From positions 3,534,001 to 3,598,000 of the forward strand of contig OY101117.1 in the NCBI GenBank assembly GCA_956465555.1: a stretch of 64,000 nt of DNA, in the 5' to 3' direction. Positions within the stretch are counted from its first letter, which is position 1. Each line of letters starts with the position of its first letter. This DNA comes from Nitzschia sp. pyKryTriq1. Its lineage: Eukaryota; Bacillariophyta; Bacillariophyceae; Bacillariales; Bacillariaceae. Shown piece after piece: positions 5,296 through 48,387 of the stretch. The notes beneath the pieces were generated by a model, which saw only the letters and a list, made by a program, of their open reading frames with translations, searched no databases and was not told the DNA's origin. The position numbers and the translations under genes are program-made.

Positions 5296-5335
<40 letters not shown>

Positions 5336-9627: not shown

Positions 9628-10416
9628 CTAGCAAGCACTTCGAACGGGCAGTCTCAAGCTATTACCAGTGCTCTTCTTTTGGGAAAGTAGCAAGAGACTA
9701 TCACGGTGCCCAGTCATCACCAGCAAATTTCCCCCACATCTCGTGGGCGAACAACAAGAAGAAGTAGCGCTCCATCGACCGGCACCAGCGCTGGAGCTCA
9801 GTGGTGGAGGTCGGTCTATATCAATAGACTTTTTCTTAGTATTCTTGCGCCTGGTGGTGGTGGCGGTGGACGAAGATATAGCGCAACGAGACAGTGATTC
9901 TACTACTTCTGCGGATGCCAGTTTGGCGGCCCGAATTCTCGCTTCTTCTTGGGCCTCTTTCGAAGTCTTTTGGTACGCGCTAGAGATCATGGTTCCATCA
10001 GTAACGTGCGCCACGTGTTCCCACTGTCGCTCTTGTTCCAACAAAACGGCGTATACGCCTGCGTTTCTTCGCTGCCGTCGATGGGATCGTACCGCACAGG
10101 AGGTTTCCAATCCGAGCAGGGAGTCGTTGGGAGGAGGAGTGGATCGCTTCGATTGAATCAGCAGCTCTTCGTCTCGCTTGGCCATTGCTTTATAATCTCG
10201 AGACGTGTACCAAATATCCGACAGCTGGACCGCAGACTCGTCGTAATCGGCATGTAGAGGGACCAGATACGAAACCTTGACGACCTTTACCGCGGAATTG
10301 AAGTGGACGTAGGTAGTCGTACCACTGGTTTCTTGGTGCAGCGGTCGTTGCCGTTTTCTCATTGGACTACTACAAGCAGTAGATGTAGTCGAAGTATTGG
10401 AAGAATTGGTTGTCAT
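9628..10416 (-). CDS. Diatom-type hypothetical protein, paralog of 17961-18740
   Basis: 262 residues from ATG 10416; an ATG two codons upstream at 10422 is possible. The frame is open further 5', but the paralog starts at the same Met-X-Met, which fixes the start region. A conserved core reads VHFNSAVKVVKVSYLVPLHA, then DYDE, AVQ.SDIWYTSR.Y and NDSLLGLE, followed by a charged region, a PPPLSSSAGAGRW block, GHRDSL and a terminal LRLPVRSAC. There are no membrane segments or signal peptide. The VxF....VKVV...YLVPLH/WYT pattern recurs in diatom proteins of unknown role, so only family membership is claimed. It is divergently oriented to the 6PGL gene, 959 bp away. Confidence 0.75.
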   Translation of the reverse strand: MTTNSSNTSTTSTACSSPMRKRQRPLHQETSGTTTYVHFNSAVKVVKVSYLVPLHADYDESAVQLSDIWYTSRDYKAMAKRDEELLIQSKRSTPPPNDSLLGLETSCAVRSHRRQRRNAGVYAVLLEQERQWEHVAHVTDGTMISSAYQKTSKEAQEEARIRAAKLASAEVVESLSRCAISSSTATTTRRKNTKKKSIDIDRPPPLSSSAGAGRWSATSSCCSPTRCGGNLLVMTGHRDSLLLLSQKKSTGNSLRLPVRSAC

Positions 10417-11375
10417 GATCATGGTTGTAACTACTAGTACTCGTACTTTGGAAAATATTATTTTTGTGAGCCCGATTTTGTGATTTCGGATTCTAGCTGT
10501 GCGTGGCAATTGAGAAACGCCGTTCTTGAATTTTAATTACTACTTGGACACCGACCACGCCCCGGGAGCCTATGTGTTGCTTCGCACTCTATTTAACGTA
10601 AATAGAGATGATGATGATGATGATTCTACGATTATTTCCTTGCTTTTTATTTCCCCGCATTTTCAATTCACGATCACGACTACCGGTACGGTGCTTGTAC
10701 AACAGGCGCTGTACTCTTACAGTACCGGTACAGTCGTGCCCGAGATTCGATGCATGGTAAGTATGTGAGTCAGAACCCACTAAATGAAATGGGTGAACCA
10801 TTCGAGAATTCCCTTTTGTTGACGCAAGTACTACCTGCGTGACAGGTGTACCGGTACCAGGTACGGTACACATACGCCTCGGGTAACCACCACCATCATC
10901 ATTATGACGAGTGTTGTCTTTGTTGGGCCTTTCGCCGGCCGAGAGGCCATTTTTTAAGAAATTTGGATTCATTCGTCTGTACTTGGTACGCTTAAGCTCG
11001 GCCGCGATGATCGATCCTTGACAACCGTTCATCTGAGCCAACGGTCTGACTGTCTGGCCGTTCCAGCAGCAACCTCCCAAGATTATTATGAGAAGATCGC
11101 GAATGAATGATATCATTATGATGTCAGCAGATTATGTATGTGTTGGTGTTCTCATGCAGCACAACATCGCATATCCATCATTTCCATCATCATCTTCCAT
11201 CTGTCTGTGTATCCCACGCACAAGAAAGATACGACAACGGGTTGTTCCTGGTCTTCCGGTATCATTATTATAATATCTCGAGACTGCATTTCTTCACCAC
11301 TTTCACTTCTCATCGTTCGCTTAGGAGCTACAGTACAGTACTACAGTACGGACAGTATCAAAATAATACAGTAGT
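10417..11375. other. Divergent intergenic region (shared promoter zone)
   Basis: Lies between the start of the minus-strand gene at 10416 and the plus-strand 6PGL gene at 11376, so it must hold both promoters. It contains (GAT)n at 10608-10622, TACCGGTA palindromes near 10680, 10722 and 10850, and ACAGTACT repeats just before 11376. A minus-strand 175-codon frame at 10589-11116 is not convincing. Confidence 0.45.
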
Positions 11376-14300
11376 ATGACTACCGCTGACCTGCTCGTTG
11401 CCAAAACCCAAGCCAATGTGGCCGAGGCGTTGTGTCAATCGATTGTGTCCATCGCTGACGAGTCCCTTCAGAACAAGTCCTCCTTTTCGATTGCGTTGAG
11501 CGGGGGGAGCTTACCTAGCTTTCTCTCCGCCTTGCCTCTCGCCTTTGAAAAGGCGCAAGTGGATCCGCAGTGGTCGAAGTGGCACGTCTTTTTGGCGGAC
11601 GAACGCTGCGTGCCACTTACTAGCGAGGACTCTAATCTCGCCGCCATTCAAGAACACTTTTTACACTTGACATCCATTCCAACCTCTCAAATCCACGGAA
11701 TCAATCAAGACTTGTTGTTGTTGTTGTTGTTGGCGGCGGCGCAGAAGCATGACGGCGAAAACAACATCGACAAAATTGCCGAGGACTACCAAGCCACGTT
11801 GGAACGTGTGTTGAAGGAGTTAACGCCTTGTTCGGATACAACCTACTCGTTTTTGGATTTGGCCGTTCTGGGATTCGGTCCCGATGGACACACTTGCAGC
11901 TTGTTTCCCAATCATCCACTATTGGAAGAAGACACGAAATGGGTCGCTGCGATTACGGATTCACCCAAACCGCCATCGGATCGCATCACATTAACGTTTC
12001 CCTTTCTCAATCAATGTACTCACAACGTGATCATCTGTGGAGCCGGTTCCAGCAAGCGCCCGATCGTCGAACAGGTCTTTCAGCCCCATGATATTTATCC
12101 ACTTCATTCGAGTCGTCAAGAAGAATATTCCAACAAGGAGATTCTTGCAGCCTATTATACGGCATCCATTTCGCACTCGCCGCCACCACCGTTCCCATGT
12201 GCCATGGTACACCCCATGAAAAGCTTGACGTGGATCCTCGATTCGGATGCTATTCCATCCAGCTGGGGACTCTTGTCAAATGTTGTGGCAGAAGTCGATG
12301 TCTTTCCCACCAAGTCGGATGTGGGTACGGAGCTTTGTCGTCAAATTGTAGCCATTTGTCAGCAATCGATTCAACAGAGGAACATCTTTTCCATCGCACT
12401 AAGTGGAGGCAGCCTTCCAGCTCTCCTCTCGAAACTTCCCGAGACGTTTCGCCAAATGAATGTACCGCCGCATTATGAGAAATGGCACATTGTCGTGGCG
12501 GATGAACGAGGGGTGCCGGAATCGCATCCGGATTCCAATCTACGTGCCATCAAGCGCTCTTTTTTGACACAAGTGGGAGTTTCGGTTCCAGCACGACAAG
12601 TCCATGGAATCGACATTGTGTCCTTGGGCGAATCCATCCAAGTGGCAGCCTTGAGCTATCAAACCACACTGCTCTCGGTCCTAGAATTGTGTGAAGGAGG
12701 GTTATTGGATTTGGTCTTGTTGGGATTTGGGGAAGACGGCCACACCTGTAGTCTCTTTCCGAATCATCCACTGCTGCTCGAACGAGAGGCCTACGTCGCA
12801 GCCTTGACGGACTCGCCCAAACCTCCTTCTTATCGCATCACGTTCACCCTTCGAACACTGAATGAACGTTCGAGAAACATTTTGTTTTGTGGAACGGGAG
12901 AGTCGAAAAGTCCCATTCTTCATGAAATCCTACAAGGGGCCTATCATCGCACTACCACCAGTGATACCAACGACAAGGAGGAGGAGGAGGAGGAGGACGG
13001 GCATCACCACCACCAGAGACTCGAAGCCAATGTCTATCCCAAATTTCCTTGTGGGATGGCACGACCCAAGGAACGACTAGTCTACCTTGCGGACGCCGCC
13101 GCCATGAAACAAGTATTTGTCGCTTCGAGTGAAGAGTCGGCGGAACACGACGAGGAAACCAATACCGGTCCCAGACTCGTCGCTCGACGAGGCTCCTCCG
13201 TGTTGCCCAAACCCGCCATTGCCAAGCTGTACGTCCACTCTCACCAAGCAGACGTCGGTGCTGAATTGTGCGCTCAGATTGTGCGATACGCAGCCACGGC
13301 GATTGCAGAACGCAGCGCTTTTACAGTCGCCTTGAGTGGAGGATCCTTGCCTGGTATGCTGTCAAAGCTTCCACAAGCCTTCGAGGACGCAGGCGTAGAC
13401 CCCCACTATCACATGTGGCACGTCTTGCTGGCGGACGAGCGATGTGTTCCCGAAGATCATCCCGAATCCAACATGCATGCACTAAATCGATATCTCTTGG
13501 GAGATCTTTACGAGCGGATCCCCCACCAACACATTTATGGCTTGGACCAAGTGTCGTTGGCAGAGTCTCCTCAAGTTGCCGCCCAGGACTACGAGCGTAA
13601 GGTTAAAACCGCTCTGGGATCATCGGGTGGCATGTTGGACCTGGCCGTTTTGGGATTTGGTCCCGATGGACACACTTGCAGTTTGTTCCCCAACCATCCG
13701 CTACTGAAAGAAGACACGAAATGGGTCGCTGCCATTACGGATTCACCCAAAGCACCGTCAAACCGCATTACCATGACCTTTCCCTTGTTGAATCAGCATA
13801 CTCGCAACGTACTGTTTTGTGGTACGGGCAACTCCAAGAGTGCGATCCTACGGGACATTTTCCCCTCCATCAAGGCCAAGGGACTCCACATGGAAATGGA
13901 TCTAGTACCAACAAAGTATCCTTGCTCCATGATTCGACCCCAAGGCGACTTGGTATACATTGTCGATGAAGGCTCCATGGAGAAAGTGCTGGATTGCGCT
14001 CCTACTGCGCCACCCGCCCAATTCGCCAAGGTTTTAGTTGCCAAGAACAAAGAAGCCCTTCCCGATCGAGTGCTTCCCTTGTTGGTTCAACAGTCGCAAA
14101 AGGCAATTCGAGAACGCGGCATCTTTACCATTGCACTTTCCGGCGGGTCGATTCCTCAACTTTTATCGGGGCTGGCGGACGCCTTTCGACACTTGGGCAT
14201 CGTTCCTCAATGGGACAAGTGGCATGTACTCTTGGCCGACGAGCGTTGCGTGCCCGGCTCCGACCCTGACTCGAATATGGGCGCCCTTCGAAGTCACCTC

Positions 14301-14828
14301 TTGGACTTTATTAACATTCCTCCTTCCCAAATATATGGGATTGACGAGTCGAAACTTGTTGCATCATCGACACAAGACCAAGCGCGAGATTACGAAGCCA
14401 AGGTTCGAAAAGTCCTGGCCCGCTCCGATGGTGTGCTCGACGTGGCGCTTCTCGGATTTGGACCCGATGGTCACACCTGTTCATTATTTCCAGGGCGGGA
14501 GCAGTTGCAGGAACGTCTTCGTTGGGTGACAGGGATCGATGATTCTCCCAAACCTCCTCCGAGGCGCATCACATTGACTTTGGGACTACTGAACGAATGG
14601 ACTCGAACTATTATTTTCTGTGGCGCCGGCGAAAGCAAGGAGCCGGTATTGAGTAAAGTCTTTCAAGAAGTCCAAGGTCGGCATGGAACGGACATTTACG
14701 TCAAAATTCAAAACGACCCTCCTCCATTCCCCTGTGCGATGGTGACCCCACAGACTCATCTCTTTTGGGTAGTTGATGCAGCCGCCATGCCCAGCAGGCA
14801 TCTGCTGCCCCCGCAAGCCTCTCCGTAA
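11376..14828 (+). CDS. Four-domain 6-phosphogluconolactonase
   Basis: Intronless, 1150 residues. It contains four tandem copies of the 6-phosphogluconolactonase (PGL, DevB/SOL) fold; ordinary PGLs are about 230-260 residues. The enzyme hydrolyses 6-phosphogluconolactone in the oxidative pentose phosphate pathway. Each copy has SGGS(L/I)P (phosphate binding), W(H).(V/L)...ADER.VP, and GFG(P/E)DGHTCSLFP with the catalytic His; the last motif starts at residues 166, 450, 760 and 1027. Copies 1, 3 and 4 keep GPDGH and ERCVP; copy 2 has GEDGH and ERGVP. Copies 1 and 3 share near-identical blocks around WVAAITDSPK, suggesting recent duplication or conversion. A Glu/His-rich insert sits near residues 545-560 in copy 2. 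There is no clear targeting peptide, so it is likely cytosolic (inference). Confidence 0.93.
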   Translation: MTTADLLVAKTQANVAEALCQSIVSIADESLQNKSSFSIALSGGSLPSFLSALPLAFEKAQVDPQWSKWHVFLADERCVPLTSEDSNLAAIQEHFLHLTSIPTSQIHGINQDLLLLLLLAAAQKHDGENNIDKIAEDYQATLERVLKELTPCSDTTYSFLDLAVLGFGPDGHTCSLFPNHPLLEEDTKWVAAITDSPKPPSDRITLTFPFLNQCTHNVIICGAGSSKRPIVEQVFQPHDIYPLHSSRQEEYSNKEILAAYYTASISHSPPPPFPCAMVHPMKSLTWILDSDAIPSSWGLLSNVVAEVDVFPTKSDVGTELCRQIVAICQQSIQQRNIFSIALSGGSLPALLSKLPETFRQMNVPPHYEKWHIVVADERGVPESHPDSNLRAIKRSFLTQVGVSVPARQVHGIDIVSLGESIQVAALSYQTTLLSVLELCEGGLLDLVLLGFGEDGHTCSLFPNHPLLLEREAYVAALTDSPKPPSYRITFTLRTLNERSRNILFCGTGESKSPILHEILQGAYHRTTTSDTNDKEEEEEEDGHHHHQRLEANVYPKFPCGMARPKERLVYLADAAAMKQVFVASSEESAEHDEETNTGPRLVARRGSSVLPKPAIAKLYVHSHQADVGAELCAQIVRYAATAIAERSAFTVALSGGSLPGMLSKLPQAFEDAGVDPHYHMWHVLLADERCVPEDHPESNMHALNRYLLGDLYERIPHQHIYGLDQVSLAESPQVAAQDYERKVKTALGSSGGMLDLAVLGFGPDGHTCSLFPNHPLLKEDTKWVAAITDSPKAPSNRITMTFPLLNQHTRNVLFCGTGNSKSAILRDIFPSIKAKGLHMEMDLVPTKYPCSMIRPQGDLVYIVDEGSMEKVLDCAPTAPPAQFAKVLVAKNKEALPDRVLPLLVQQSQKAIRERGIFTIALSGGSIPQLLSGLADAFRHLGIVPQWDKWHVLLADERCVPGSDPDSNMGALRSHLLDFINIPPSQIYGIDESKLVASSTQDQARDYEAKVRKVLARSDGVLDVALLGFGPDGHTCSLFPGREQLQERLRWVTGIDDSPKPPPRRITLTLGLLNEWTRTIIFCGAGESKEPVLSKVFQEVQGRHGTDIYVKIQNDPPPFPCAMVTPQTHLFWVVDAAAMPSRHLLPPQASP

Positions 14829-15373
14829 AGTTCTCTCTAGCTAGCTAGCTAGCTAGCTAGCTAATGTACTACTACTAGTAGAGAGTACTGTACTCGTACT
14901 ACTACTACTAGTATATTAGGCAGTTGCACTTCTATTCCTCAAACTACTACTACTTCTACTACTACTTCTACTACTACTAGCTCGCTAGCTAGTACTACTA
15001 GTAGAGTAGACTAATTGTGCAGTCGGATAGTCTTGACCCGAGAGTGCAGGAGTACTTGTACTATTTTCACGCTATTCTTCCGCAACCGGTGCCAGCCCCG
15101 CGCACCTCGCCGCTAATAGCTAATACAGTACACGTACGAGCTCATCATGACGTCACCAGAAGATTGTCAAAAACGCGCGCGCGCAAAAACAACAAAAGAT
15201 ACACTTCTTACTACTTCTACAACGTACCGTATCTTGGAAAAGTCGTCGAGAGTGATGAGAAGAAGGAATTCAAAGAAGCAAAGAAGCAGTAGATGATAGG
15301 CAGAGGAGAACACTCAAAGTTGACACAACGAAGCCAAAGAACAAGCACAAGCAACAACGACCAACGACAAACC
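14829..15373. other. Intergenic; (AGCT)n and TAC/TAG microsatellites
   Basis: An (AGCT)n run at about 14838-14861 and GTA/TAC repeats to 15010. The open frame at 15017-15292 abuts the next gene and is best read as 5' UTR or chance. Confidence 0.45.
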
Positions 15374-16222
15374 ATGGCAGAAGATTCTAAAGCAACACCT
15401 ACCACGAAAGCTAAAGCTGATGTTGGTCGTGGTGATGGCGGCTTGGCAATTATTGGAGCGGGTTATGGAAGAACGGGCACCGCTTCGATGCAAGAAGCCT
15501 TGAATCTCCTGGGATTCGGGCCGTGTTATCACATGAAAGAAGTCTTCAAGGATCCCAACGGAGTTTCCAAATGGGATCAAGTCGGCCTTGAATTTGACAA
15601 CAACAAGAAGAAGGAAAACGTAGTAGCAGTAGACTGGGACGATATCTTTCATGGCTACAAATCGACCGTGGATTTCCCGGCGGCCCCCTATTACAAGGAA
15701 CTATTCAACAAGTATCCGAATGCCAAAGTCATTCTCAACGTACGCGACCCGGAAAAATGGTGGGGAAGTTATGCGGAAACGATTAGCCCTAGCCCGCCCC
15801 TTTGGAGGGTCATTTATACCATTACCGGGCAAAGAAGTTTTCAGTGGGATCGAATGGTGGAAAATTGTGTGTACAAACCGATTGCAGGAAGCCGCGCCAA
15901 TGCTCGGCAAAAGGAGGCGGCGATTGCCGGATTTAACCGACACAACGAACAAGTCAAGGCCAACATTCCCGCTGACAAACTTCTGGTATTTGAAGTAAAA
16001 GAAGGATGGGGACCACTCTGCCAATTTCTAGGCTGCCCCGTTCCTCCCAAAGATACTCCCTTTCCACACACCAACGATACGGCCCAGTTCAAGAAATTTA
16101 TTGCGATCCGCAAGAAAAAGGCCTTGGCGATACTGGCGGCAGAAGTCACACTGGTCATAGTAGCGGCGGGTTTCTTGTTGTGGGCGCGTGATGGAGGAAG
16201 AAATAAGTCGAAATCATACTAG
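15374..16222 (+). CDS. Sulfotransferase-family protein, C-terminally membrane anchored
   Basis: 282 residues from ATG 15374 (context AACCATGG, stronger than the in-frame ATG at 15293). The N-terminal part has a PAPS-binding P-loop, IIGAGYGRTGTASMQEAL (about residues 26-43), and a downstream 3'-phosphate motif NVRDPEKWWGSY (about 122-133), both typical of the Sulfotransfer_4 (PF17784) group. FNRHNEQVK and LLVFEVKEGWGPLCQFLG are further family signatures. A hydrophobic helix near residues 253-272 followed by a basic tail indicates a tail anchor facing the cytosol. The substrate is unknown. The protein is otherwise of normal family length. Confidence 0.85.
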   Translation: MAEDSKATPTTKAKADVGRGDGGLAIIGAGYGRTGTASMQEALNLLGFGPCYHMKEVFKDPNGVSKWDQVGLEFDNNKKKENVVAVDWDDIFHGYKSTVDFPAAPYYKELFNKYPNAKVILNVRDPEKWWGSYAETISPSPPLWRVIYTITGQRSFQWDRMVENCVYKPIAGSRANARQKEAAIAGFNRHNEQVKANIPADKLLVFEVKEGWGPLCQFLGCPVPPKDTPFPHTNDTAQFKKFIAIRKKKALAILAAEVTLVIVAAGFLLWARDGGRNKSKSY

Positions 16223-17960
16223 TAGTAGTAGCTAATAGAGGATGAGAGGCTTTCTTTTCCTACTATATAATAGCATTATACATACTAGTACTACATGCAC
16301 CTCTCTTTTGATTCGATATCAACAATAATTCTACGGTAGTACTAGCGACTCGTCTTTAGAGCAAAGAATGATACGTTGCTGTTGCGCATGGAGGAGGATT
16401 ACGACTACTTGATGACACAACTACAACTAGCTAGTACTGTAGGACGTATTCATAGCCTACCTCATGGTACATCCTCGTCATACTACCTGGTACTACTACT
16501 AGCGATTGCTAATAAAGTCATCTCTCTGAAAGGAGAAAGTACTAGTAGACTAGAGTGGTGGAATTAATCATCGATCATGGGCCATGATCAGAGGAAGACT
16601 AGTAGTAGTAATACTGGTAGTAGAGAGTGATAGTTCGGACCCCGGGTACTAGTATTCTGAATCATATACCTTTGAAGGCAATCTACTTGTAGTACTAATA
16701 GCTAGTACAGTAGTCGTTTCGCAGAATCTACTACTGTTGTTGTTGTTGTTGTTGTTAACTGTCTCCAGTCCCATTGAGCGTGGTTAGAACGGGATATCAA
16801 TCCCACCAGAGGCTCGCAGGCACTTAGACTAGACTACTAAGTGCGTTCTTAGACTACCTACTCCTGTTCCCCATCGGATTCCTAGGTCATGGCCTCCGTC
16901 TTACTGGTGTTAGTCTTTAGTCCTACCCCGAAATTTCAAGTCTCGGTCCCCGCCTCGCCGGTTACCGCCTGGACGCTTATGTGCGTGACGAACCAAACCA
17001 GGTCCCATCATATTATTGAACCAAACCATCCACAATATCTACAAGGGCTGATATACATTTCATCGACTTTATAAGGACCAACTCACCAAAGATTTTAACA
17101 CCCACCGAACAAAACGGCTTTTACAACGAGCTATGATGACGAACTAGCATACATTTCTCCTCTAACGTGACGAAATGAGGGGAGTGACAACAGCGCAATG
17201 ATACGAAGGAATCTGGAATCGGGAATTCCAGCATTCCACGCATGGCGCTAGCACAAGATCTCCATATCATCATAGATTTCCACTCACACCATTCACCAAT
17301 CCTCCGAGATTGATGACCATGACTTTATTATTATCTATTACTATAATCTACCTTTACATGCTTTGCTATCCGCTGTTATCAGGAGAAATAACGTCATCTC
17401 TCTCTACTACTGTAGAGTAGAGAGAAACTCAAGTACCGGTAGTAGTAGTACCAGCAGGCAGGATCATAGACATGGCCTACAGGAGTATCAAAGTAGTAGT
17501 ACCAAAGTACTACCGGTAGCGGGGTTTCTCATCATGATCGGTCGGTCGTGCGTCGGCCATTATTTTGTCGGCATCAAATTCCAAATAAAAATACACCCTC
17601 GGTACTTCGGAGTTTCTTTGTCTCTGACGCACGAAGGAGGCGAGCCGAGGGATCTATTTTCCCGTTGTTCTCTCATTTCTCATTTCCGGAAAAAAAATAC
17701 GGGACCCGGGGGAAAGAATCCTCGATTCTGAAGAAAGGAGAAAGTGGTGGAATGATGAATCATCATCATCATCATCATCGATCATCGGAAGGATATCCCT
17801 ACTACTACCGTAGCTACTAGCTACTACTACTACTAGTAGTAGAATAATATACCTTTATTAGAAGCCCCTACTACGGTACCATAATAATATGTTATAAGAG
17901 AAACTAGAAAGTAGAAGTAGTGTGCGAGTAGTAGTACTAATCGTAGTTGTAGCTACTCCA
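16223..17960. other. Long intergenic stretch, no gene supported
   Basis: Holds GTA/TAC/TAG trimers throughout, (TTG)n at 16737-16757, (CAT)n at 17760-17780 and many TACCGGTA motifs. The longest open frame (17363-17731) has no protein-like features. Confidence 0.45.
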
Positions 17961-23900: not shown

Positions 23901-24018
23901 GAGACGAAGTCTATTGAATATCGGGAGTGGACTTTCCTTTACAAATCGGCGCAAGAAGAAGAATCATCCTCATCATGATGAGCATCCAGCACCACTTCGA
24001 AACGGCAGCAACGAGTAG
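20921..24018 (+). CDS. Protein kinase with large acidic insert (3 exons, one frame break)
   Basis: Exons 20921-22753, 22988-23096 and 23313-24018. Introns are GTAAGT...CAG (phase 0) and GTAAGT...TAG (phase 1). Start ATG 20921 follows a CAAG-rich leader. Kinase motifs in order: glycine loop LGQGGFGVV (residues 227-235), RYAIKQ with Lys432, HRDLKPDN (599-606), a DLG in place of DFG (IFDLGLAKE), MAPEVA, CDVYSF, and a final conserved Arg (TQRPT). About 200 residues rich in Asp, Gly and Arg separate the glycine loop from the Lys; another basic/Ser insert precedes HRD. The ~210-residue N-terminus is Asp/Ser/Thr-rich. In exon 3 the MAPEVALEETP frame and the YDARCDVYSF frame are offset by one base at about 23342-23344. 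The TKL-like class is inferred from ARCDVYSFALLLWEI. The substrate is unknown. Confidence 0.82.
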
Positions 24019-24144
24019 AGCTTTCTAGAGTAGAGAGTAGGGTACTACCCATAGAAGGAATCAAAGCATCAAGCATCCTCGATACGGCTACTCCTAGTAG
24101 AGTACAGTTAGTACACGGTGGCTCCAGCTACCACAGCTATCATC

Positions 24145-24684
24145 ATGCCATTTCCGCCCTGCTCATCACCACCAGCATCATCGTCATCATATTATATTGA
24201 TACGGATGCTCTGCTCGACAGAATGCAACAACATCAAGAGTACGATTACGATCGTCTTCGTAATGATTACAATTACAACACGAATTGGGTTCTCGGAATC
24301 AGGCAGAGTGTCGAACACATCATGGAGATGGCGGAGCAAGTAATTGATGCGACCGATGCTGATATGTTGGATAGGATCATGGAGGACAATTCGATGTTGA
24401 GCAGTGGTACTACTACTACTATTATGAGTATCCTCCGCAGCATCAATCGGATGAATCCCAGTATGATGATGGCGGCGGCGGGTGCTGTCGAGGACTACAA
24501 TCATGTCGAGGACAACTCTTCCTTCTCAACCAGCAGCACCCCCTCATATCATGCACAAGAAGAAGACCAGCAGAATCAGCATCAGCAAAGACCGACCACG
24601 CCAAGCACCAACACCAACTCTAATGATGATCTACTAATGAGACACGAAGAAAGCAACGACGCGGCCAACGAAGGAGAAGAATAA
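24145..24684 (+). CDS. Small hypothetical protein, paralog of 41562-42170
   Basis: 179 residues. The frame is open from a GTG at 24118, but ATG 24145 is the first Met and aligns with the paralog. Shared blocks: PPCSS.PPA, TDALLDR (residues about 20-26), LGIR(Q/E)S..HI.E.AEQVI and ATDADMLDRIM(E/Q)DNS, then ILRSINR. The C-terminal third is Gln/Thr/Asn-rich and acidic at the end. The central block is predicted helical by its hydrophobic spacing. No known domain was recognised. It lies 126 bp downstream of the kinase and converges on the SET gene. Confidence 0.6.
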   Translation: MPFPPCSSPPASSSSYYIDTDALLDRMQQHQEYDYDRLRNDYNYNTNWVLGIRQSVEHIMEMAEQVIDATDADMLDRIMEDNSMLSSGTTTTIMSILRSINRMNPSMMMAAAGAVEDYNHVEDNSSFSTSSTPSYHAQEEDQQNQHQQRPTTPSTNTNSNDDLLMRHEESNDAANEGEE

Positions 24685-25022
24685 CAGGTGGTGGTGCAAC
24701 ATGTTATGACCATCTTGTTTCGAAGTAAAGTAAAGTAAAACGAGCAGTAGCAGCATTCGACGTAACTTGCTTTTTCTATCATCTCGGCTGCCTGTATCTC
24801 GCGCGGCGTCGTACTACTGTAGCTTTATTCCGTACTATTACACGTACTGTACTCTAGAGCTGTTTCCGCACTATTCATTTCCGAGGTACTACTATACCAA
24901 CATAAAAAGTCATGATATTGCTACAGTAGAAGTCTACTAGTAGTACCGAGCTGACATCATGATATTACTGGCCGCCGACAACATCAAAATTCTAGCGCTG
25001 GAATTCTTGACAAGCACTGCTA
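24685..25022. other. Convergent intergenic region
   Basis: AT-richer with TACTAC repeats. It separates the 3' ends of two convergent genes. No gene is supported. Confidence 0.4.
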
Positions 25023-28000
25023 CTAGTAAAGAAGATCTTTCCACAAGGGAGGAAATTCCTCCTCTGGAAAGGCGATCTCGTGGCGAAAAGTACCCGCAAC
25101 CATCATATCCGACTGAAAGGGCCGAAGATAAAACTGAATCGCCTCGGGAGGCACGTCCTTGACACGTGCCACCATTCGACTAGAAGAGTCATTCTTTGCC
25201 CTACTTCTACTAGCAGTAGGAGCTCCAAGAAAGTAGACAACGTCAAACGCCTGACTTTCTGCGGAGCTGTCCAATATTTTGCAAGGCTTGGAATCCATAA
25301 AATCAGTCGGCACCTTGAAGCCCTCGTCGCCGTGCGTAATCCCCATATAGGATTGTTTCCGCCTTGGGTCTACTACAGCCTTGGTAAAGTCAGTGGATAT
25401 AGTTTCTTCAATCCAGAACGTCTCGCCTTTTTCTTTGATGAGGGTGGCGTTGTATAAGCACGTTGTCAGGTGGGTACTCGTCCATGGGTGAAAACTTTTG
25501 TTGAACTTGTCATCATTCATGGAGAGCACCCGTTTTGACGATTTGAAGCAAGACGGTTCCGACGACGATCTACATGGACTCTTCCAGTTGTCGATGTACG
25601 CTTTCCACGCTTCTTCCCATGCTTCGCCTGTGTGTGTAGAGAGAGAAAGAGAGATCATCACATGAGAACGATTCTGTAGTCTACGCAAAGGGGATATAAG
25701 CAGACTGCTCCTACCATAGTCTATGAAAATCTCTTCGTCTGGTTGAATATCGCGAGTTGCGATGACCTCAATCATAACAGTTGAATATTTTTGCTGCAAA
25801 AAGTCAACGATAGAGAACGAGAATGAGAATAAGATCATAAAAGTAGAAGAATCAAGGCTGGATGAAGTGACGTGCCGGCCCGTACCTCAAGCAAATCCTC
25901 CAGCGGAAGGCTCGTAAAATATCTAGTCCGGCGGTCAGTTTTCGAAAAAGCGATTCTCGCATTGGGTGCGCTCCCGTCCTCGAGGCGGGCGCTATTGTGA
26001 TTAATAGACATCGCTTGGTTAAGCGGGAATAGCAAGGTTGACGAATCTTTGTGCCCAAAGTGATAATTGGTCATGAGTTGGTAATCATTGGTCGCTTCTC
26101 CAAGGCGCGTACTATTAATGAAAAGAACGCCTCTTGTGGTTGGAATAGTCGGAGCCGAAATGATGCTGGCGCCCTTGCCAAGGAATCTCCGCGAGAAGGC
26201 ACCCTTTCCAGCATTGGGGAGAGTACTATCCTTGACAAAGATGTGGTCTTGGCAGTATCCATTCGCCTCGAGCCATTCTTGTGATCGAGCTTCCACCGTC
26301 GCTTCGGCCGTCCCATTGCGAGTGAGGACATGGCGTAGATCGTCCAACGTCTGAACAGCACTCAAAGCCGAGAGTGTTCGCTTGTTTTCGGTCTCCACAA
26401 AATGATCGCGAATGAGGGAAAGAAAATTCGCCACAAATGATTCTTCGTTCTCGATCGCGCCAGTATGAAGAAGGGCCAATACCGAGGCGAGGATGGCATT
26501 CGCTTGCATAAAGTTTTCCAACAGAGGCACATTGGCAAACTTGGCACGATGACGAAACCAAGTCTCTCCATACGAAACAAACAATTCTTCCCCGGCCGCA
26601 ATCGGATACTTCGAACGAAAGCCACTATTCACGTAGTCGGAAAAGGCACCCGCTCCGTAGTCTTGAACTCCATCTAGTGCGGGCGACCACTCGCCCACGT
26701 CTATTTCCAAATTGTTGATCCCAGAGTGGCAGTTTGCCATAGCTCCCATGACACCGGAAAGAAAGGTAATGGAAGGCAACTTTGGCCAGCCTTCATAAAC
26801 GCTCGCATTAAAGCCATTCCAAACATAATCTTGACCGACCCAAGGTTCTTTATCCTCTGGGGAAGAAAACGCGGGAATGAGTGACACAGACGTTGCCACC
26901 ATCACATCTCCCGCCGGAATATCGACAGCGGTGTAAACCCCCAACCCAGCATTGGGAATATTGCTCTTTGCAATGTAGACACCGCATTTCGCTTTTCGAA
27001 GGGCTCGTTCGTAGCCCTCTTGCTCTGCGTTATTCTGTACACTGACGTCTGCGTAAGTTCCAAGCTTGAAATCTTGGGCGGTCTTGTAGTCTCGGCGCCA
27101 TCGTCGAGGAAAGATGGAATCGGGGATGGGAATGAAATGCCGAAACGCCCATTCCAAATGCATATCGGTGTGATAAAGAGAGTTTGTGAACTGGATCCGA
27201 TCTCCAGGAACGTTTCGGAATTTCCGGCCCACTTGAGCAAGGGATAGAGGCTTAACGAGCATTTCAACCTCATGAAGATTTGTGCTTGGGTCGACTCGGA
27301 CAACATTGCAAGGGTACAGGGACACCGCATCGTTGTACTTGTACCATGCAACATAGGTTGCCGGCCATTGCTCCCGATCAGTGGCCCCGTTGGCGGCAAA
27401 ATCCTCCCAGCCCGCCGGCCTGCTTGGAACGATCTTGACGTGAGGGTAGACCATACAAAAGTAGGCAAGGTGCTCGGGACGGACCTCGGTGGATGGAGCT
27501 ATGGCACGACCCATGGCATTGACCTTGTTTGCAGAGAGACGGCTGGCGTTGTCGGCATTGATCGTGTTGATACTGCTGGAAGTGCCATGTTCCAAATGAT
27601 CCGCCAAAGCGTCCTCCCAGCTTTTTGTGTAGTCCAAGAATAGTTCCTCTCCGGCTTGAATGGGCCGAATTGCTACGTATTCCATCACCACTCGAGTCTT
27701 GTAGGAGGCCAGATCCGTCTGACTGATGTTCGTAATCGATTCCAGAGACTCCAGTTTGAAATGATGATCTGGTGCATCCTCTTCCGTACTGGTTGTAGGA
27801 GTCGCCGACGACCATCGGATGGCCACGTTGGGAGTAATAGAATTTGTATTAACAGAATTTGTACCGGTAGCGGCAGTACTCGCATGATTGATCAACGCTG
27901 CATGAGTCGTTGGACAAAACAAAAGATCGGAGTGCTCATGTCCGAAACAATAATTCGTCAAGAGTTGTTGTGTTGCGTTGGCACGGATATCCGGAAAGTA

Positions 28001-30018
28001 AAAGTCCTGCTCGTCATTGTCGTCGTCGTCGTGGTTCGCGAATAGTACGTCCTTGGGATTTGAAGGTGTATTGGCAGATGTGGTAAAAGGAACTTCCATT
28101 GCCGTTTTCCCATTGGTGATTGTTACCATGGGCGATACGGAAATAATGGAACCCTTGGGCATGTCTCGTGTCGCAAAGGCGCCATGCCCCGCTTCGGGAA
28201 TAATCGTACTCGCTTTGGATGTGATCGTATCGAGACAGTACCCTATATTATTATTAGTAGTAGCAATAGGAGTAGAGTACGAGCAGAGTACAATACAAGC
28301 AATAAGGAGGGAAAGAGACAAAATGAGAATGACAATGACAGCGACCACCCTATCCATCCACCCACCAATCATTTACTAATAAAGTAAGTAGTACGTACGT
28401 ACCATTCTGTTCTATCCAATCCAAACTCCGTTCCTTCAATTTGCACTTGGCCGTACCCACTTGGACACATTTTTCTAATTCTTGTCGAGTCCTCGGGATG
28501 AGACTGGATAATAATCTCTTGGCCCGGTCATCCTCGGCAGCAGGATACCCGGTACCACGACCTACAACCACCACTTCCTTGGCTAATCGATACAAGGCGT
28601 CTTCCAATTGAGCATCCGTCAAGGTGTGGACAATGTTGTTGCTGTTGCTGTTGCTGTTGTTGTCGTTATTGTCGCTGTTGTCATCACCGAGATTATTCAT
28701 CATCATGATTATGCCATGAATCATGGTATCGACCAATTCATAATCCTTGGCCGAGGGAAGATGACGCTCGTAGTAGATGTTGTTGTTGTTGTTGTTCCTT
28801 GTTCGATCAAAAAACAATTCTTCCCCCTTTTGAATATTGCGTTTGGCAATCAAATAAAAGTCATGATAGGCCGTCGAGGATCCTGCCATGGGATTGGTAT
28901 AGCGATAAAAGTCTCCATCTTGTGTCAATCCACCCGGGAGAACTAGTAATAATAATATAAAAAGAACAATAAAGAAAAAAGAAAAGCAAAGCAAAAGCAT
29001 GAGTGAACGAACGAACGAACGAACGAACGAACGAACGAATGAATGGAGCCACCAACCAACCAACCAACCAACCTAAAGTTCTATTATATAGTGATGTAGT
29101 ATGTAATAAATAGCACGTACCATTATCCAAGGCCGCATGATGATTGATCAACGATGCCGGGCCCGGTAGAAACAAGTCGACCCGAAGTCCCTCTCCAAAG
29201 GCACCAATATCCGCCGACTCCCTTTTGGTAGTAGTAATAGTGGTAGTAGTATAGTAGTAGTAGCAATATAGTAGAAGTATGGAATGAAATGAAACGAAAT
29301 GGAATGTGAGGATACGACTACTACTAGAATTACAACACGACATGCACATGTGCATGAACATGCCAATGATGGAATATACATTCGTACCACAAGTATTCAC
29401 TCAACGCTCCATAGATAAATGTTGTGTCGCCTCGCCCGGTTGGCATGTCGAGGAATGGAATGCCGACGCTCGGAGTTCCCTGAAATATGAAATGGAATAA
29501 TGAAGTGAAGTGAAGTGAAAGGAAAGGAAAAAGCATCCACAGTAAGTTAGAACGAAAGAAAGTACAAAAGTAAGAAACATAGAGCATTGAGTAAAGTATT
29601 GTATCATTTTAGCTCATTTCAGCTCAGCTCAGCTCATTTCAGCTTAGTCTGGTTCAGTTCAGCTCAGTCTGGTTCAATTCAGTTCACTTCACTTTTACTT
29701 GTTTATTACACTTACGATCCGATCCCCCATGGCAAAGTCTCGTGCCGCAAAGACACCCCATCCGGCGTTGGGTATTGAACTTTTCGCCATGTAAATGGAG
29801 CATGACGACGACGACGAAGAAGATGATGATGATGAAGAAGATGATGATGGTGGGGTGGGCGCTGCTGCTTGGGCGGTGTTACTCCTCTTTTGCATCACCG
29901 ATGTGGGCACCGTTTTCGCTCCGACGTGATGGATGCCCATCATCATCATGCCCATCATCATCATTCCCATCGTCATGGCCATCATCATCTTCCTTATCCT
30001 TATCCTTATCCTGGCCAT
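25023..30018 (-). CDS. Four-SET-domain protein, (SET-linker-SET-X) x2, seven exons
   Basis: Exons, in transcript order: 29716-30018, 29388-29479, 29121-29221, 28403-28942, 25886-28242, 25715-25793, 25023-25627. All six introns are GT-AG and all phases match, giving 1358 residues. SET domains (usually protein-lysine methyltransferases using S-adenosylmethionine) start near residues 73, 347, 765 and 1007 with the (I/L)PNAG.G(V/A)F-type motif. SET2 has INHAS, PNVAI and GEELFLDY; SET4 has INHNSA, PNARI and DEEIFIDYG. SET1 (GEELFFDR, no PN) and SET3 (NCHS, GEELFVSYG) depart from the consensus. SET2 and SET4 are each followed by a homologous X region ending FRH.I..P...FP..W. The linkers before SET2 and SET4 share RS..W(I/L)E.NGYC. 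The Met-rich N-terminus could be a signal or artefact. Substrate not known. Confidence 0.88.
28945..29063 (-). repeat. Tetranucleotide runs in intron 3 of the SET gene
   Basis: (GAAC)n at 29006-29036 and (CAAC)n at 29053-29072, in the intron between exons 3 and 4. The whole block, with different repeat numbers, recurs at 34010-34105. Confidence 0.7.
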
Positions 30019-30690
30019 ATCACAATACTACTATACGGTAATAATATGCGGTGGGCCAATGTATGTGTGTGAATGGTATAATATACTGTATGGTAATATT
30101 ATATTATTATTATGAATGCAATGGGAATATGTACGGTAGTAGTAATAAGAAAGACACAGCATTATACCATCACCATCATCATCACTAACTGCATGTGATT
30201 TGGTGCTGTGGAGCGGCGGCGGTGCGACGACGACGACTCATTGGTACAGGCTACACGTACAGTTAGTACGTACAGTATTTGCTGTGTAGTATGGTGCGTA
30301 CTTTGCTACAGTTCGTACGTGTACAGTAGTAGTAGGTACCTTGTACCTTACGTAGATGAGTCCGAGTGGTCAAACATCGGGCAATCAGAAATAAGAATTT
30401 GTGCGTGTGCTACTAGTAGTGTGTCTACGACCAGTAGAGTAGTAGAGTACTAGTAGAGTCGACCCTTTTTTCTTAACGCGCACCTTTTTAAGCCTAAAAG
30501 GGTCGATTTTTTCTTATCACAGTCTTAAAACGTCGCCTCGATAATTAGTAATTTCTGTTTTCCGTCTCCCTCTGACCCTACCGGTACTCATTATTTCTAC
30601 TTTCGTCATTGTTGTTTTTTGGATCAAGTTGACCGCGAGTTTGATCAAGAACTAACCCTCTTCGAGTTTCTGATGAAGAACGAGTTGTAC
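30019..30690. other. 5' flank of the SET gene
   Basis: The ATC/CAT-rich trimer array just inside and upstream of the start, and GTAC-rich DNA at 30240-30460. No gene is supported. Confidence 0.4.
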
Positions 30691-30691
30691 A

Positions 30692-31262
30692 TTGGTATTT
30701 GATGACACCTACCCCTACATTGATCAAAGGAGGTTCGTCAAGAAGGACTGGTCTGAGTTTTACCCTGACGCTGCGGAGGTGATACCGCCAAAGATGCCTG
30801 AAGGGCGGGGTCTACCGGTGACCATGTCCTGTTTTGTGGATGCTGATCATGGGGGATGCAGAGGGTGTCATCATTTTGGTCATTCGCTTGCCAATCTTAT
30901 GGTACAGCAAGAGGCAAACGACTGTCGAGACATCGACCTGGGGGAGCGAAATATGTGCACTTAGAACCGCCATTGAAATGGTGGAGGGGTTGCGATACAA
31001 GTTGAGGATGATGGGCGTCATTCTCGACGGCCCATGCGATGTCTTCTGTGACAATGACTCCGTGGTCAAGTCTACGACTAGGCCAGAGAGTAACTTACAG
31101 AAGAAAAGCAATGCAGTAGCTTACCACAAGGCCCAGGAGTTGCAAGCTGCCGAGGCGATACGGATTACCCACGAGGACGGCGATACCAACCTCGCCGATA
31201 TCCTCACGAAGCTACTTCCTGGGCCACGACTCCGCGAACTGAGCGGAAAGATTCTATGGTAG
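30692..31262 (+). mobile_element. Fossil Ty1/copia retrotransposon 3' portion (RNase H)
   Basis: Translations show the copia RNase H pattern: FVDADHGG, then WYSKRQTTVETSTWGSE, VFCDNDSVVKS, YHKAQE and NLADILTK.LPG, as found at the end of diatom Ty1/copia (CoDi-like) polyproteins. The element is truncated at its 5' side, carries about one or two breaks, and ends near 31262. The 31263-31800 segment, which repeats the motif AACGGGGAC, may include remains of its 3' terminal repeat, but no matching 5' repeat is in the window. Moderately young judging by motif preservation. Confidence 0.85.
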
Positions 31263-33874: not shown

Positions 33875-34105
33875 CAAAAACAATTCTTCCCCCTTTTGAA
33901 TATTACGTTTGGCAATCAAATAAAAGTCATGATAGGCCGTCGAGGATCCTGCCATGGGACCGGTATAACGATAAAAGTCTCCATCTTGTGTCAAACCACC
34001 CGGGAGAACTAATAATAATATAAAAAGAACAATAAAGAAAAAAGCAAAGGAAAAAGCAAAAGCAAAAGCATGAATGAGTGAATTAATGGAGCCACCAACC
34101 AACCA
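33875..34105 (-). pseudogene. Partial copy of the four-SET gene (exon 4 start plus intron 3)
   Basis: Matches 28808-29068 in the same orientation with only scattered differences. 33875-34008 corresponds to the first part of exon 4 (LPGGLTQDGDFYRYTGPMAG ... IQKGEELF) and 34009-34105 to the adjacent intron, including the rare ACCAACCAACC tail. The exon 4 acceptor context is retained, but no other exons are present and the reading diverges after GEELF. Intron sequence in the copy shows a DNA-level duplication rather than a retrocopy. Confidence 0.88.
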
Positions 34106-35257
34106 AGCGACCGACCACGAGAAACTGAAGGGACTCACCGATGGGAAAGCCATCGTCGCCTCTTACTCGTCTTACGACCGTACCTCGTGGGCTTCCGGCC
34201 TTCGAACCCTGATATTGTACCCATCAGCGATAGGGGAATACTCATGTCATCCTCATCGTTCTGGATGATAATGGCGTATGGTACAGGAGAAAAAGACAAG
34301 AGTCTTGATAAGCTTACTCTTTTACAGAAGCAACACTTGATAAGCTAAAAATACCATTTACTGCGATATACAAATAACGTGGTTGATCTTTCGTAACAAG
34401 TAGGGGCACTAACTGCGCTATCATACGACATGCTATTAATTATTGTAGACTACGTAGTACTCGTAGTGGTACAGTTAGTAGTTAATAGTGTGGGTAGACA
34501 GATACTGTACTTCGTCCTACTACTACTACTAGTAGCAGAGAGAGCGTACTGTTGTCCTACAGTACCGCTGTACTACTACAGTACGTAGATTATTCTGTTT
34601 TTCGAATGAGCCGTTTGGAACATTTTTGTGCGTGCCGTTTTCTTCCTCAATGAAGCAGCGGGCAATAATCAGCATAGGTACTACTACCGGTACTAATAAT
34701 GAAGTGTCGTACTGGTACTATTAGTAGTACGTGTACCGAACGGTACTTTCAAATACAGTAGATACTGTACCTGGTAGTAGTAGAATTGGTGGTGTTTTAC
34801 CGTTTAGCAAAAGCGAGGACGGTCGGTCGGTCGGTCGGTGCTTCTACTATCTGCATGCACATGCTTCGCTTTTTCAAAGACAACAACGATCGATTATTAT
34901 TGATCATGCATGGAATGGATGAATAATAATGCCTCAAGCAAGGTTCGGCATTTTGGTTTGCTCAACATGCAAGCCCTTGCGAATACCCCATACTTGCATC
35001 ATCACAAAATAATGCATACATAATATGCATCTTCTCAATGCTGGATCAAAAACGGAAAATCATGCATTTGCACCGATCGATCGAGCGCAGCAAGCAGCTA
35101 CTAACTGTAGCAGCCGGTGTTATATTTTAGATAGCTATGCGAAGCGTGTGGCACGCAGTAGTCTACTACGAGTAAAGGAGCGTCATCATCATCATCATCA
35201 TTTGTCTCGAGCGAGGAGCTAGCAAGCAAGCAAGCAAGCAACTCCTCATCACGTGTC
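34106..35257. other. Intergenic, no gene supported
   Basis: GTAC/TAC repeats at 34440-34590 and 34680-34790, (GGTC)n at 34820-34838, (CAAG)n at 35222-35240. Probable promoter of the 35258 ORF at the right end. Confidence 0.4.
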
Positions 35258-43980: not shown

Positions 43981-44139
43981 CAGCCAGTAGCCATGTAATA
44001 GAGGATGAACCACTTGCTATTCGCGTCCACGACGTCGCACGCCAGACCGCAAGCGTCTTGAGTAAACAAGACGTACAGTAGGACCAATTCTTCGTTATGG
44101 CATTGAATTTTGGTACATGTCCCCGAGGAGTAGTTCCAA

Positions 44140-44565
44140 CTAGAAGTACACAAATTCACCCTTGTCATCAAGGTTTGCTCTTTTCTTGGCAGATAAGAAG
44201 TAGTAGTCTCCAAAGAGAGCGTCGTCGTTACGTTTTCGATAATCCACAAACTTAGTACGCTTCCCCTCGATGATGTTGTTGTTCTCGTCAAAATCGGCTT
44301 CTGGATCTACCAGAGTAGTAGTAGTAGTAGTAGAGTGACCCCGACTAATAGCGCTTTGCGTTTTGTTGCGTAGTAGTCGACGACGCTTACGCTTGTTGGT
44401 CTTCTTGCGACGAGGTGCTGCTGCCACCACCGTCCCCGTCCGAGAGTACGCTGCAAATTCCTCGCTCTTGTCGATCTTCTTGAGGTCGACGGACGACACA
44501 GCGAGTAGCGAAGCTTGGCTGGACCGCATAGATGATTCGTCGCTCCTGCCTATCATCACCACCAT
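44140..44565 (-). CDS. Hypothetical basic protein
   Basis: 141 residues from ATG 44565 (the open frame extends to about 44637 without ATG). Features: a basic block RRKKTNKRKRRRLLRNK suggesting nuclear localisation, then KRTKFVDYRKR, DALFGDYYFLSAKKRANLDD and the end GEFVYF. The next segment in another frame (about 44150-43953) also reads like protein, so a further exon is possible. Unknown family. Confidence 0.4.
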   Translation of the reverse strand: MVVMIGRSDESSMRSSQASLLAVSSVDLKKIDKSEEFAAYSRTGTVVAAAPRRKKTNKRKRRRLLRNKTQSAISRGHSTTTTTTLVDPEADFDENNNIIEGKRTKFVDYRKRNDDALFGDYYFLSAKKRANLDDKGEFVYF

Positions 44566-44865
44566 GTTTCTCCTGGCCTTGGCGTTCTCGTCGGCGTCGT
44601 CGTCGTCGTTGTTGTTGTTCAAAAGGATGAGTTTTCGTCAAACAATATACTAGTAGTAGACTGTAGTAGCCCTCGTTGTTTTCGTCATCAAAGTCCTAAT
44701 AGTACCCACTGGCATCGGGGGAACGCCGCCACCGTATCCGCCTTGTTGTTGGAAAAAGTCAGTCAGTTTTCACCCGAATAAAAGGCGGTACATACTAATA
44801 ATGGATCATCATCATCATCACCATCATGGGATTGCTGCGAGGAGACGACGAGCATTATTATTTCT

Positions 44866-46762: not shown

Positions 46763-46915
46763 AGTACGTATGAAGTTTTCGAATTGCGAACCCTCGGATA
46801 AATTCTGTTCTGTGAAGTACGTATGAAGTTTTCGAATTGCGAACCCTCGGATAAATTCTGTTCTGTGAAGTACGTATGAAGTTTTCGAATTGCGAACCCT
46901 CGGATAAATTCAGTA
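46755..46915. repeat. 53-bp tandem repeat, three copies
   Basis: Unit CTGTGAAGTACGTATGAAGT ... CCCTCGGATAAATT recurs at 46758, 46811 and 46864 with no visible differences. The first copy contains the TGA stop of the preceding small gene. Confidence 0.92.
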
Positions 46916-47109
46916 GAAAATGAGGTAGATGCCTTCAACTATCGTAGAATCTCGTTAAGACTTACTAGAATCGAGGCATCCATCACTCTCACCAACCTCG
47001 CGATTTCGGATCTCGACATCATTCAAACTCACTAAATCCTTGTTCTCACAATCTCAGAGTCGACGCCGAAAGTTATAATCCCTCCTCCTCTTTCAAAAAC
47101 AAAAGAACA

Positions 47110-48241: not shown

Positions 48242-48354
48242 GTCATTGATCATCCTACTGCTACCACCACGGCCTGGTGATGACATGAGCAGTACTACTC
48301 TCAAGGTAGTATGATGGTAGTTCGAGAGATGAAACAAAGGAAGAATCGGAAAGA

Positions 48355-48387
<33 letters not shown>

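What the first reader, a model, noticed from the sequence alone, without database searches (positions are those of the whole stretch)
25023..30018. Seven-exon gene with four SET domains arranged as a duplicated double-SET module
All phases join, giving 1358 residues with SET domains near 73, 347, 765 and 1007. The order is SET-linker-SET-X repeated twice: SET1 resembles SET3, SET2 resembles SET4, both linkers share RS..W.E.NGYC, and both X regions end FRH.I..P...FP..W. The second SET of each module keeps NH, PN and a DY-type motif, while the first of each has lost parts, suggesting an alternating pseudo-enzyme/enzyme layout. I know of no described protein with this architecture.
Basis: partly seen in the sequence, partly recalled or inferred. 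Interest (0 to 1): 0.85.

Follow-up and report, generated by a model that had tools for sequence, protein, structure and literature searches.

The report
Four-SET diatom protein from doubled module
A diatom gene really does encode a protein with four methyltransferase-type (SET) domains, made by doubling a two-SET unit in which one domain looks dead and the other live; it belongs to a diatom gene family that probably methylates proteins of the secretory route, perhaps those that shape the silica shell.

Summary
The minus-strand gene at 25023-30018 has seven exons, six GT-AG introns and 1358 residues. All four SET domains pass Pfam's cut-off, in the order SETa-SETb-X-SETa-SETb-X. An intact copy on another contig shows coding constraint along the exon chain, and a paralogue shares the intron most open to doubt.

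The architecture is not isolated. The genome holds about 19 genes built on this module, one of them with it doubled in a single frame. SETb keeps the catalytic motifs in 19 of 20 sequences seen. SETa lacks at least one in 17 of 17 aligned, so pseudo-enzyme/enzyme pairing is the family norm. Seventeen of 19 genes have signal-peptide-like N-termini and one ends in KDEL; this protein's own N-terminus is marginal. Diatom-specific SET methyltransferases were reported in 2020, so this looks like a doubled variant of a known kind.

Most likely it methylates lysines of secretory cargo, plausibly silica-forming proteins; substrate and location are inferred. Bold lead: four paralogues carry a C-terminal domain with an HxD...H...R pattern like that of 2OG-Fe(II) hydroxylases, which would fit the trimethyl-hydroxylysine of silaffins. 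No profile search confirmed it.

The parts
29716..30018 (-). exon 1: start codon, basic then Met-rich N-terminus, Ser run, start of SET1
   Evidence: the ATG is the first after an in-frame stop
29917..30018 (-). possible signal peptide (MARIRIRIRK-MMMAMTMGMMMMGMMMMG-IHHVGA)
   Evidence: 12-residue hydropathy 1.54, marginal; C1 copy 2.05; 95% of 196 internal-Met controls lie at or under 1.61
29388..29479 (-). exon 2 (SET1)
29121..29221 (-). exon 3 (SET1, LINHHAALDN)
28403..28942 (-). exon 4 (end of SET1, ELFFDRTR, and linker 1 with RSLDWIEQNG)
28806..29802 (-). SET1 (SETa type, residues 73-211, spliced); keeps NH, lacks PN and the catalytic Tyr
28243..28402 (-). intron 4, joining SET1 to SET2; read in the exon-5 frame it is open from an internal ATG at 28372
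   Evidence: same position and phase as an intron of L024; by my reading all 3 differences between the copies would change amino acids of the alternative frame
25886..28242 (-). exon 5: SET2, X1, SET3, linker 2, first part of SET4
27596..28406 (-). SET2 (SETb type, residues 345-561): INH, TPN, EELFLDY intact
27098..27595 (-). X1, family-specific region ending FRHFIPIPDSIFPRRW
   Evidence: no Pfam match over its cut-off
26552..26986 (-). SET3 (SETa type, residues 765-909): NH lost, YG kept
25715..25793 (-). exon 6 (SET4)
25596..26263 (-). SET4 (SETb type, residues 1006-1168, spliced): INH, APN, EEIFIDYG intact
25023..25627 (-). exon 7: end of SET4, X2 (ends FRHEIAFPEEEFPPLW), stop

Best explanation
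The gene encodes a doubled (SETa-SETb-X)x2 member of a diatom family of SET-domain protein methyltransferases that mostly enter the secretory pathway. In each module SETb is the working AdoMet-dependent N-methyltransferase. SETa is a degraded SET that more likely serves as scaffold, substrate groove or regulator, and X is a family-specific C-terminal region. The doubling gives one chain two active sites, which would suit repeated methylation of clustered lysines such as the KXXK groups of silaffins and cingulins. Shown: gene structure, four SETs, module homology, motif retention, purifying selection, family size. Inferred: catalysis, secretory location of this particular protein, and lysine-rich silica-forming proteins as substrate.
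For: Four SETs and exon chain. In the SETb alignment GxG, the N-H pair, the N of PN and the Tyr of the EE...Y motif are invariant in 19 of 19 rows. The solved relatives of the SETb profile are SET lysine methyltransferases, first 4rz0 (PFL0690c) at 6.4e-8, then SETD8/KMT5A at 6.9e-5. SETa degraded: 17 of 17 rows lack the NH pair or the Tyr (15 rows reach the Tyr). 17 of 19 family genes have signal-peptide-like N-termini, and paralogue L012 ends DKDEL. The host is a diatom with 8 silicon transporter places. The review PMC4557024 (passages) says all lysines of silaffin-1A1 are di- or trimethylated or carry polyamine, and that KXXK clusters might be a recognition sequence for the enzymes. Two papers citing Nemoto 2020 say diatom-specific SET methyltransferases were proposed to act on cell-wall proteins and long-chain polyamines (passages).
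Against: The window protein's own N-terminus is only a marginal signal peptide (1.54, inside the upper tenth of controls), and the other doubled gene L013 has none that I could find (0.99). Start Mets were chosen by eye, and for L015, L016, L019 and L021 the N-terminus is an upstream open frame assumed to be the first exon. Sequons are not clearly enriched: 76 against 64 expected over 17 proteins, 10 against 11.8 in this one. L029 has a degraded SETb, so intact SETb is not universal. No expression, localisation or activity data; no usable structure model (pLDDT 31.5). Nemoto's sequences could not be compared. A pelagophyte, not a diatom, also has a SET gene with a signal peptide (PMC9133084 passages), so that trait may not be diatom-only.
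Confidence: 0.55

Rival explanations
1. Same enzyme family, but the substrate is long-chain polyamines (or polyamine side chains on lysine), not lysine itself.
For: Polyamines of diatom silica are N-methylated, and some diatom polyamine-synthesis fusions carry a histone N-methyltransferase domain (PMC12029483 passage, citing Michael 2011). PMC11554505 suggests SET proteins may methylate putrescine (passage).
Against: This genome has other SET frames directly upstream of aminopropyltransferase frames (L039: SET frame 2395-3585 before frame 1-2337; L040: SET frame 7432-8709 before frame 4276-7368). Those two give no match to the SETa, SETb or X models at E 0.001; the best frame anywhere in L039-L041 reaches 20.5 bits with SETb, and none matches X. 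Polyamine methylation may already be served by another SET class.
Confidence: 0.2
2. A nuclear or cytosolic histone or other protein methyltransferase that regulates transcription or stress, unrelated to silica.
For: Most characterised SET proteins do this (established knowledge, recalled). The solved relatives include SETD8, EZH2 and KMT2A. The window N-terminus is a weak signal peptide and L013 has none.
Against: 17 of 19 family members have signal-peptide-like N-termini, and one has KDEL.
Confidence: 0.2
3. Two genes, not one: exons 1-4 encode a single-SETa protein, and a second transcript starts at the internal ATG 28372 with the hydrophobic leader MIGGWMDRVVAVIVILILSLSLLIACIVLCS.
For: The frame is open through intron 4 in both copies (845 aa), the leader looks like a signal peptide, and intron 4 differs between the copies at only 3 of 160 bases.
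Against: The spliced junction restores the family motif RSLDWIEQNGYC. L024 has an intron at the same codon and phase, and by my reading all three differences would change amino acids of the leader. The intron is pyrimidine-rich, which reads as hydrophobic residues in any case. L013 has the SETa-SETb-X module twice in one open frame.
Confidence: 0.05

Closest known systems
[quoted passage not shown] 2020, Mar Biotechnol 22:551; not held, seen only as cited in PMC11151724 and PMC11554505)
   Same: Diatom SET proteins linked to the cell wall. My recall of the abstract, from no call, is that they were picked as putative ER-targeted proteins; 17 of 19 genes here have signal-peptide-like N-termini.
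   Different: Here the module is resolved as degraded SETa + intact SETb + X, and it is doubled in this gene. I could not compare sequences, nor check whether Nemoto described the double SET.
PfSET7 (4rz0, PFL0690c; the name PfSET7 is recalled) and KMT5A/SETD8 SET domains
   Same: Closest solved sequence relatives of the SETb profile (6.4e-8 and 6.9e-5); same SET motifs.
   Different: One SET, no SETa, no X, not secretory (recalled).
AdoMetDC/aminopropyltransferase/methyltransferase fusions of diatoms (Michael 2011, not held, cited in PMC12029483)
   Same: Also link a histone-type N-methyltransferase domain with silica chemistry.
   Different: No polyamine-synthesis domain in this gene; the SET frames beside such genes here do not match the family models or match them weakly.
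Chlamydomonas SUV-class protein with two SET domains (PMC5725981, one passage read)
   Same: More than one SET in one chain.
   Different: Has SAD_SRA and PreSET domains; no doubled module is described in the passage.

Membership tests
SET domain (PF00856) | Score over Pfam's cut-off | tested here: met
   4 of 4 segments, 26.0-36.3 bits against 22.4
Catalytically competent SET methyltransferase | N-H, N of PN, and Tyr of the EE...Y motif | tested here: met
   SET2 and SET4, within 19 of 19 SETb rows; not met by SET1 (no PN, no Tyr) and SET3 (no NH); activity itself not tested
SETa-SETb-X family of this genome | Both SET types and X in order | tested here: met
   HMMs built without the window find all six parts
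Diatom-specific SET methyltransferases (Nemoto 2020) | Sequence similarity to the described members | not testable with these tools
   Paper and sequences not held
Diatom-specific SET methyltransferases (Nemoto 2020) | ER targeting (recalled criterion) | tested here: inconclusive
   17 of 19 family genes signal-peptide-like; window 1.54, its copy 2.05
Diatom-specific SET methyltransferases (Nemoto 2020) | Response to silicon (recalled) | not testable with these tools
   No expression data
Polyamine-synthesis/methyltransferase fusions (Michael 2011) | AdoMet decarboxylase or aminopropyltransferase domain in the same protein | tested here: not met
   No such Pfam match in the 1358 aa; none of the 21 PF01564 or 9 PF02675 places lies in this gene
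2OG-Fe(II) dioxygenase (C-terminal domain of paralogues L018, L020, L025, L029, and of L028) | HxD...H metal triad and distal Arg (pattern recalled) | tested here: met
   Invariant in 5 of 5 rows: H148, D150, H204, R223
2OG-Fe(II) dioxygenase (same domain) | Profile similarity to a known dioxygenase family | tested here: not met
   No Pfam dioxygenase or solved-structure match, hhalign probability 0.1% against 7 PF13640 members; therefore not filed as a member

The most novel reading that the evidence does not exclude
This family is the missing lysine-modifying machinery of diatom biosilica: tandem pseudo-SET/SET modules in the ER lumen methylate clustered lysines of silaffin-like proteins, and the paralogues fused to a C-terminal HxD...H...R domain also hydroxylate them, giving epsilon-N,N,N-trimethyl-delta-hydroxylysine on one enzyme. 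The doubled-module proteins such as this one act as two-site versions for repeated lysine clusters.
Probability: 0.25. Interest if true: 0.85.

Novelty: new variant of a known kind. Interest (0 to 1): 0.55.

Why it matters
Silaffin lysines are known to be methylated and hydroxylated (PMC4557024 passages). In the passages that I read from the papers listed in four searches, none named a proven enzyme for it; most listed papers were seen as titles and abstract starts only. If this family does it, a defined set of about 19 genes makes the question directly testable. Independently, a SET family in which a degraded SET precedes an intact one, and in which the pair was doubled at least twice, is a clear natural case of pseudo-enzyme/enzyme pairing, probably outside chromatin.

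Tried and rejected
Structure: AlphaFold2 on exon 5 alone gave pLDDT 31.5 and pTM 0.22, so no fold search was made.

Signal peptide in the window gene: marginal, not claimed. N-glycosylation sequons as a lumen test: no clear enrichment, so not used as support.

C-terminal domain of the paralogues as a known dioxygenase: no profile support; NCBIfam gave nothing either. Kept only as a motif-level lead.

Pfam on ten paralogue frames: PF00856 has one passing stretch in 8 and two in 2 (L013, L020), so most SETa copies outside the window gene fall below Pfam's reach and are called SETa by similarity to the window's SET1/SET3. In L013, Pfam sees two stretches for four SETs.

PF08666 (SAF) scores 21.2 bits against a cut-off of 21 on the whole window protein with no stretch passing on its own, best at 195-208 inside SET1; taken as an overlap with SET, not a domain. 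X1's best Pfam match, Allene_ox_cyc, is far under its cut-off (14.1 against 31.2).

Relatives elsewhere: none in viral contigs with A1, none in bacterial/archaeal contigs with two single-protein queries. Single-protein scans reach close relatives only.

Single ancestral four-SET gene: one clade of all four modules is rejected (p-AU 0.0011 on SETa+SETb+X; 0.0068 on SETb+X). Whether the two modules of the window gene are sisters is neither shown nor rejected (p-AU 0.10 in both trees); their branches are long.

Dropped rows: L027 (one SETb-like SET at 45.6 bits, no X or SETa match) was left out of the family. L015, L019 and L029 were left out of the SETa alignment because their SETa is split or diverged. 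L029 and the C1 copy were left out of A1, and L029's SETb reads SSIRHGRPAN and EELLMDLG, so it lacks the N of N-H and the Tyr. L020 has almost no X and was left out of the X model; L026's frame ends before FRH.
Full report
OBSERVATION. On the minus strand seven exons join through six GT-AG introns into 1358 residues from an ATG at 30018 to a stop at 25023. Pfam SET (PF00856) is found four times, and each segment alone passes the curated cut-off (29.2, 36.3, 26.0 and 29.7 bits against 22.4). The two X regions have no Pfam match over its cut-off.

THE EXON CHAIN. No RNA data could be used, so the chain was tested by comparison. The genome carries a second copy of the gene on contig C1 (region C1:4694184-4701126, 95% DNA identity). 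It keeps all splice dinucleotides and also encodes 1358 residues. Between the copies the exons differ at 56 of 4056 aligned bases (1.4%) with 6 of 6 indels a multiple of three. The introns differ at 72 of 885 (8.1%) with 6 of 8 indels not a multiple of three, although introns 4 and 5 taken alone differ only at 3 of 160 and 2 of 92. dN is 0.009, dS 0.032 and dN/dS 0.28 over 1349 codons. This fits a coding chain under purifying selection. Intron 4 is the weak point, because it can also be read open from an internal ATG at 28372. But it lies at the same codon and phase as an intron of paralogue L024 (EENG|GQC), the joined codons restore the family motif RSLDWIEQNGYC, and by my reading all three differences would change amino acids if the stretch were coding.

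MODULE. Profile HMMs built only from paralogues recover SETa-SETb-X-SETa-SETb-X: SETa at 73-211 and 765-909, SETb at 345-561 and 1006-1168, X at 640-729 and 1231-1356. SET1 and SET3 score 101 and 89 bits with SETa but 25 and 21 with SETb; SET2 and SET4 score 141 and 138 with SETb but 31 and 25 with SETa; the best shuffled control is about 6 bits.

A FAMILY, NOT A SINGLETON. Searches of the window's own genome with two different family proteins return nearly the same set of places (L027 appears only in the first and L029 only in the second). Counting genes from the fetched loci gives about 19: this gene, its C1 copy, the doubled gene L013 (C11:1233404-1237348, one open frame of 1330 aa), fifteen single-module genes, and a diverged one, L029. 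X is nearly absent in L020 and cut short in L026's frame. Pfam sees only one SET in 8 of 10 paralogue frames scanned and two in L013 and L020, so SETa outside the window gene is mostly called by family similarity. The host is a diatom: eight silicon-transporter places, seven of them at 870 bits or more. No relatives were found in viral or in bacterial and archaeal contigs, within the reach of those scans.

CATALYTIC STATE. In the SETb alignment of 19 sequences from 17 genes, GxG, the N-H pair, the N of PN and the Tyr of the EE...Y motif are invariant (A1). L029, not in that alignment, has lost the N of N-H and the Tyr, so the count is 19 of 20. In the SETa alignment of 17 sequences the NH pair survives only in SET1 of the window gene, and that domain has lost the Tyr (FFDRTR). 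By my reading 11 rows keep the Tyr, 4 lack it and 2 end at an exon border before it. No SETa row is complete. The degraded/intact layout is thus the norm of the family. That the degraded domains are inactive is inferred.

HOW OFTEN DOUBLED. A tree of SETa+SETb+X per module puts both modules of L013 with L014 and L016 (98/99), apart from the window modules. Forcing the four modules of the two doubled genes into one clade is rejected (p-AU 0.0011). The doubling therefore most likely happened at least twice. Whether the window's two modules are each other's nearest kin cannot be told (p-AU 0.10), and their branches are long.

WHERE IT WORKS. Seventeen of 19 family genes have N-termini with a hydrophobic 12-residue stretch of 1.92 or more on the Kyte-Doolittle scale. 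Internal-Met controls have a median of 0.62, and 11 of 196 reach 1.6. Start Mets were chosen by eye, and for four genes the N-terminus is an upstream frame assumed to be the first exon; both favour signal peptides. L012 ends in DKDEL, the ER-retention signal (recalled). Against this, the window protein reaches only 1.54 (basic then Met-rich; its copy 2.05), L013 only 0.99, and sequons are not clearly enriched (76 against 64 expected over 17 proteins; this protein 10 against 11.8). Secretory location is well supported for the family and open for this protein.

WHAT IT LIKELY DOES. The SETb profile finds 4rz0 (PFL0690c) at 6.4e-8, then SETD8/KMT5A, so N-methylation with AdoMet is the natural reading. 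In a diatom the obvious lysine-methylated secretory substrates are silaffins. [quoted passage not shown] Two papers citing Nemoto et al. 2020 report diatom-specific SET methyltransferases thought to act on cell-wall proteins and polyamines (passages). I recall from its abstract, not from any call, that these were found among ER-targeted diatom-specific proteins. Two active sites in one chain would suit clustered lysines; this is inference.

A LEAD FROM THE PARALOGUES. L018, L020 and L025 carry a further C-terminal domain in the same open frame; in L029 it lies in a neighbouring frame, so that fusion assumes an intron. The domain is also present in L028, a gene with a signal-peptide-like start and no SET match. 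Over five rows H148xD150, H204 and R223 are invariant, the pattern expected of a 2OG-Fe(II) hydroxylase (recalled). No library confirms it: Pfam, NCBIfam, solved structures and a profile comparison with seven PF13640 members are all negative for this domain. A weak Pfam match of L028 to the WelO5 halogenase family (E 0.22, 11.5 bits against 27) falls on its other, N-terminal part. If the domain is a hydroxylase, methylation and delta-hydroxylation of lysine would sit on one protein.

THE POLYAMINE RIVAL. In the same genome other SET frames lie directly upstream of aminopropyltransferase frames, as described for diatom fusions (PMC12029483 passage citing Michael 2011). The two clearest of these SET frames give no match to the family models; the best frame in L039-L041 reaches 20.5 bits with SETb and none matches X. 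Polyamine methylation may thus have its own SET class, which leaves proteins as the better guess here.

VERDICT. A true, well-supported four-SET gene; a doubled variant of an apparently known diatom family; substrate unproven.

Noticed in passing
window 33876-34116 (minus-strand reading): An isolated 241-base duplicate of the start of exon 4 and the intron before it (83% DNA; 43 residues at 95% identity), a relic of this SET gene; the same fragment lies beside the C1 copy.
   Followed up: partly
window about 9000-52000 (C3:3543000-3586000): The three stretches of the window that were searched (9000-17000, 24000-31000, 44000-52000) are duplicated, with gaps, near the end of contig C1 (C1:4677690-4716136, 93-99% identity), so this is probably a terminal segmental duplication of tens of kilobases; both copies lie within about 70 kb of their contig ends.
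   Followed up: partly
window 11376-14828 (+): One open frame of 1150 aa with four Glucosamine_iso/6-phosphogluconolactonase stretches (4.2e-237): another four-fold tandem-domain protein.
   Followed up: no
L018, L020, L025, L029, L028: Uncatalogued C-terminal domain with invariant HxD...H...R, fused to double-SET modules and, in L028, to an N-terminal part that by eye also has an HTD...H pattern.
   Followed up: partly
L012, C-terminus: A double-SET protein ending in DKDEL.
   Followed up: partly
L039, L040 (C13:129500-139400, C16:391800-401700): SET frames of another class immediately upstream of aminopropyltransferase frames on the same strand, likely fused or split by a short intron.
   Followed up: partly
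   Followed up: no
window 30700-31260 (+): Copia-like retroelement remnant (ADILTKLLPGPRLRELSGKILW) just upstream of the gene; name recalled from the motif.
   Followed up: no
PMC9133084 (not in the window): A pelagophyte SET gene with a signal peptide is reported there (passages), so secretory SET proteins may reach beyond diatoms.
   Followed up: no
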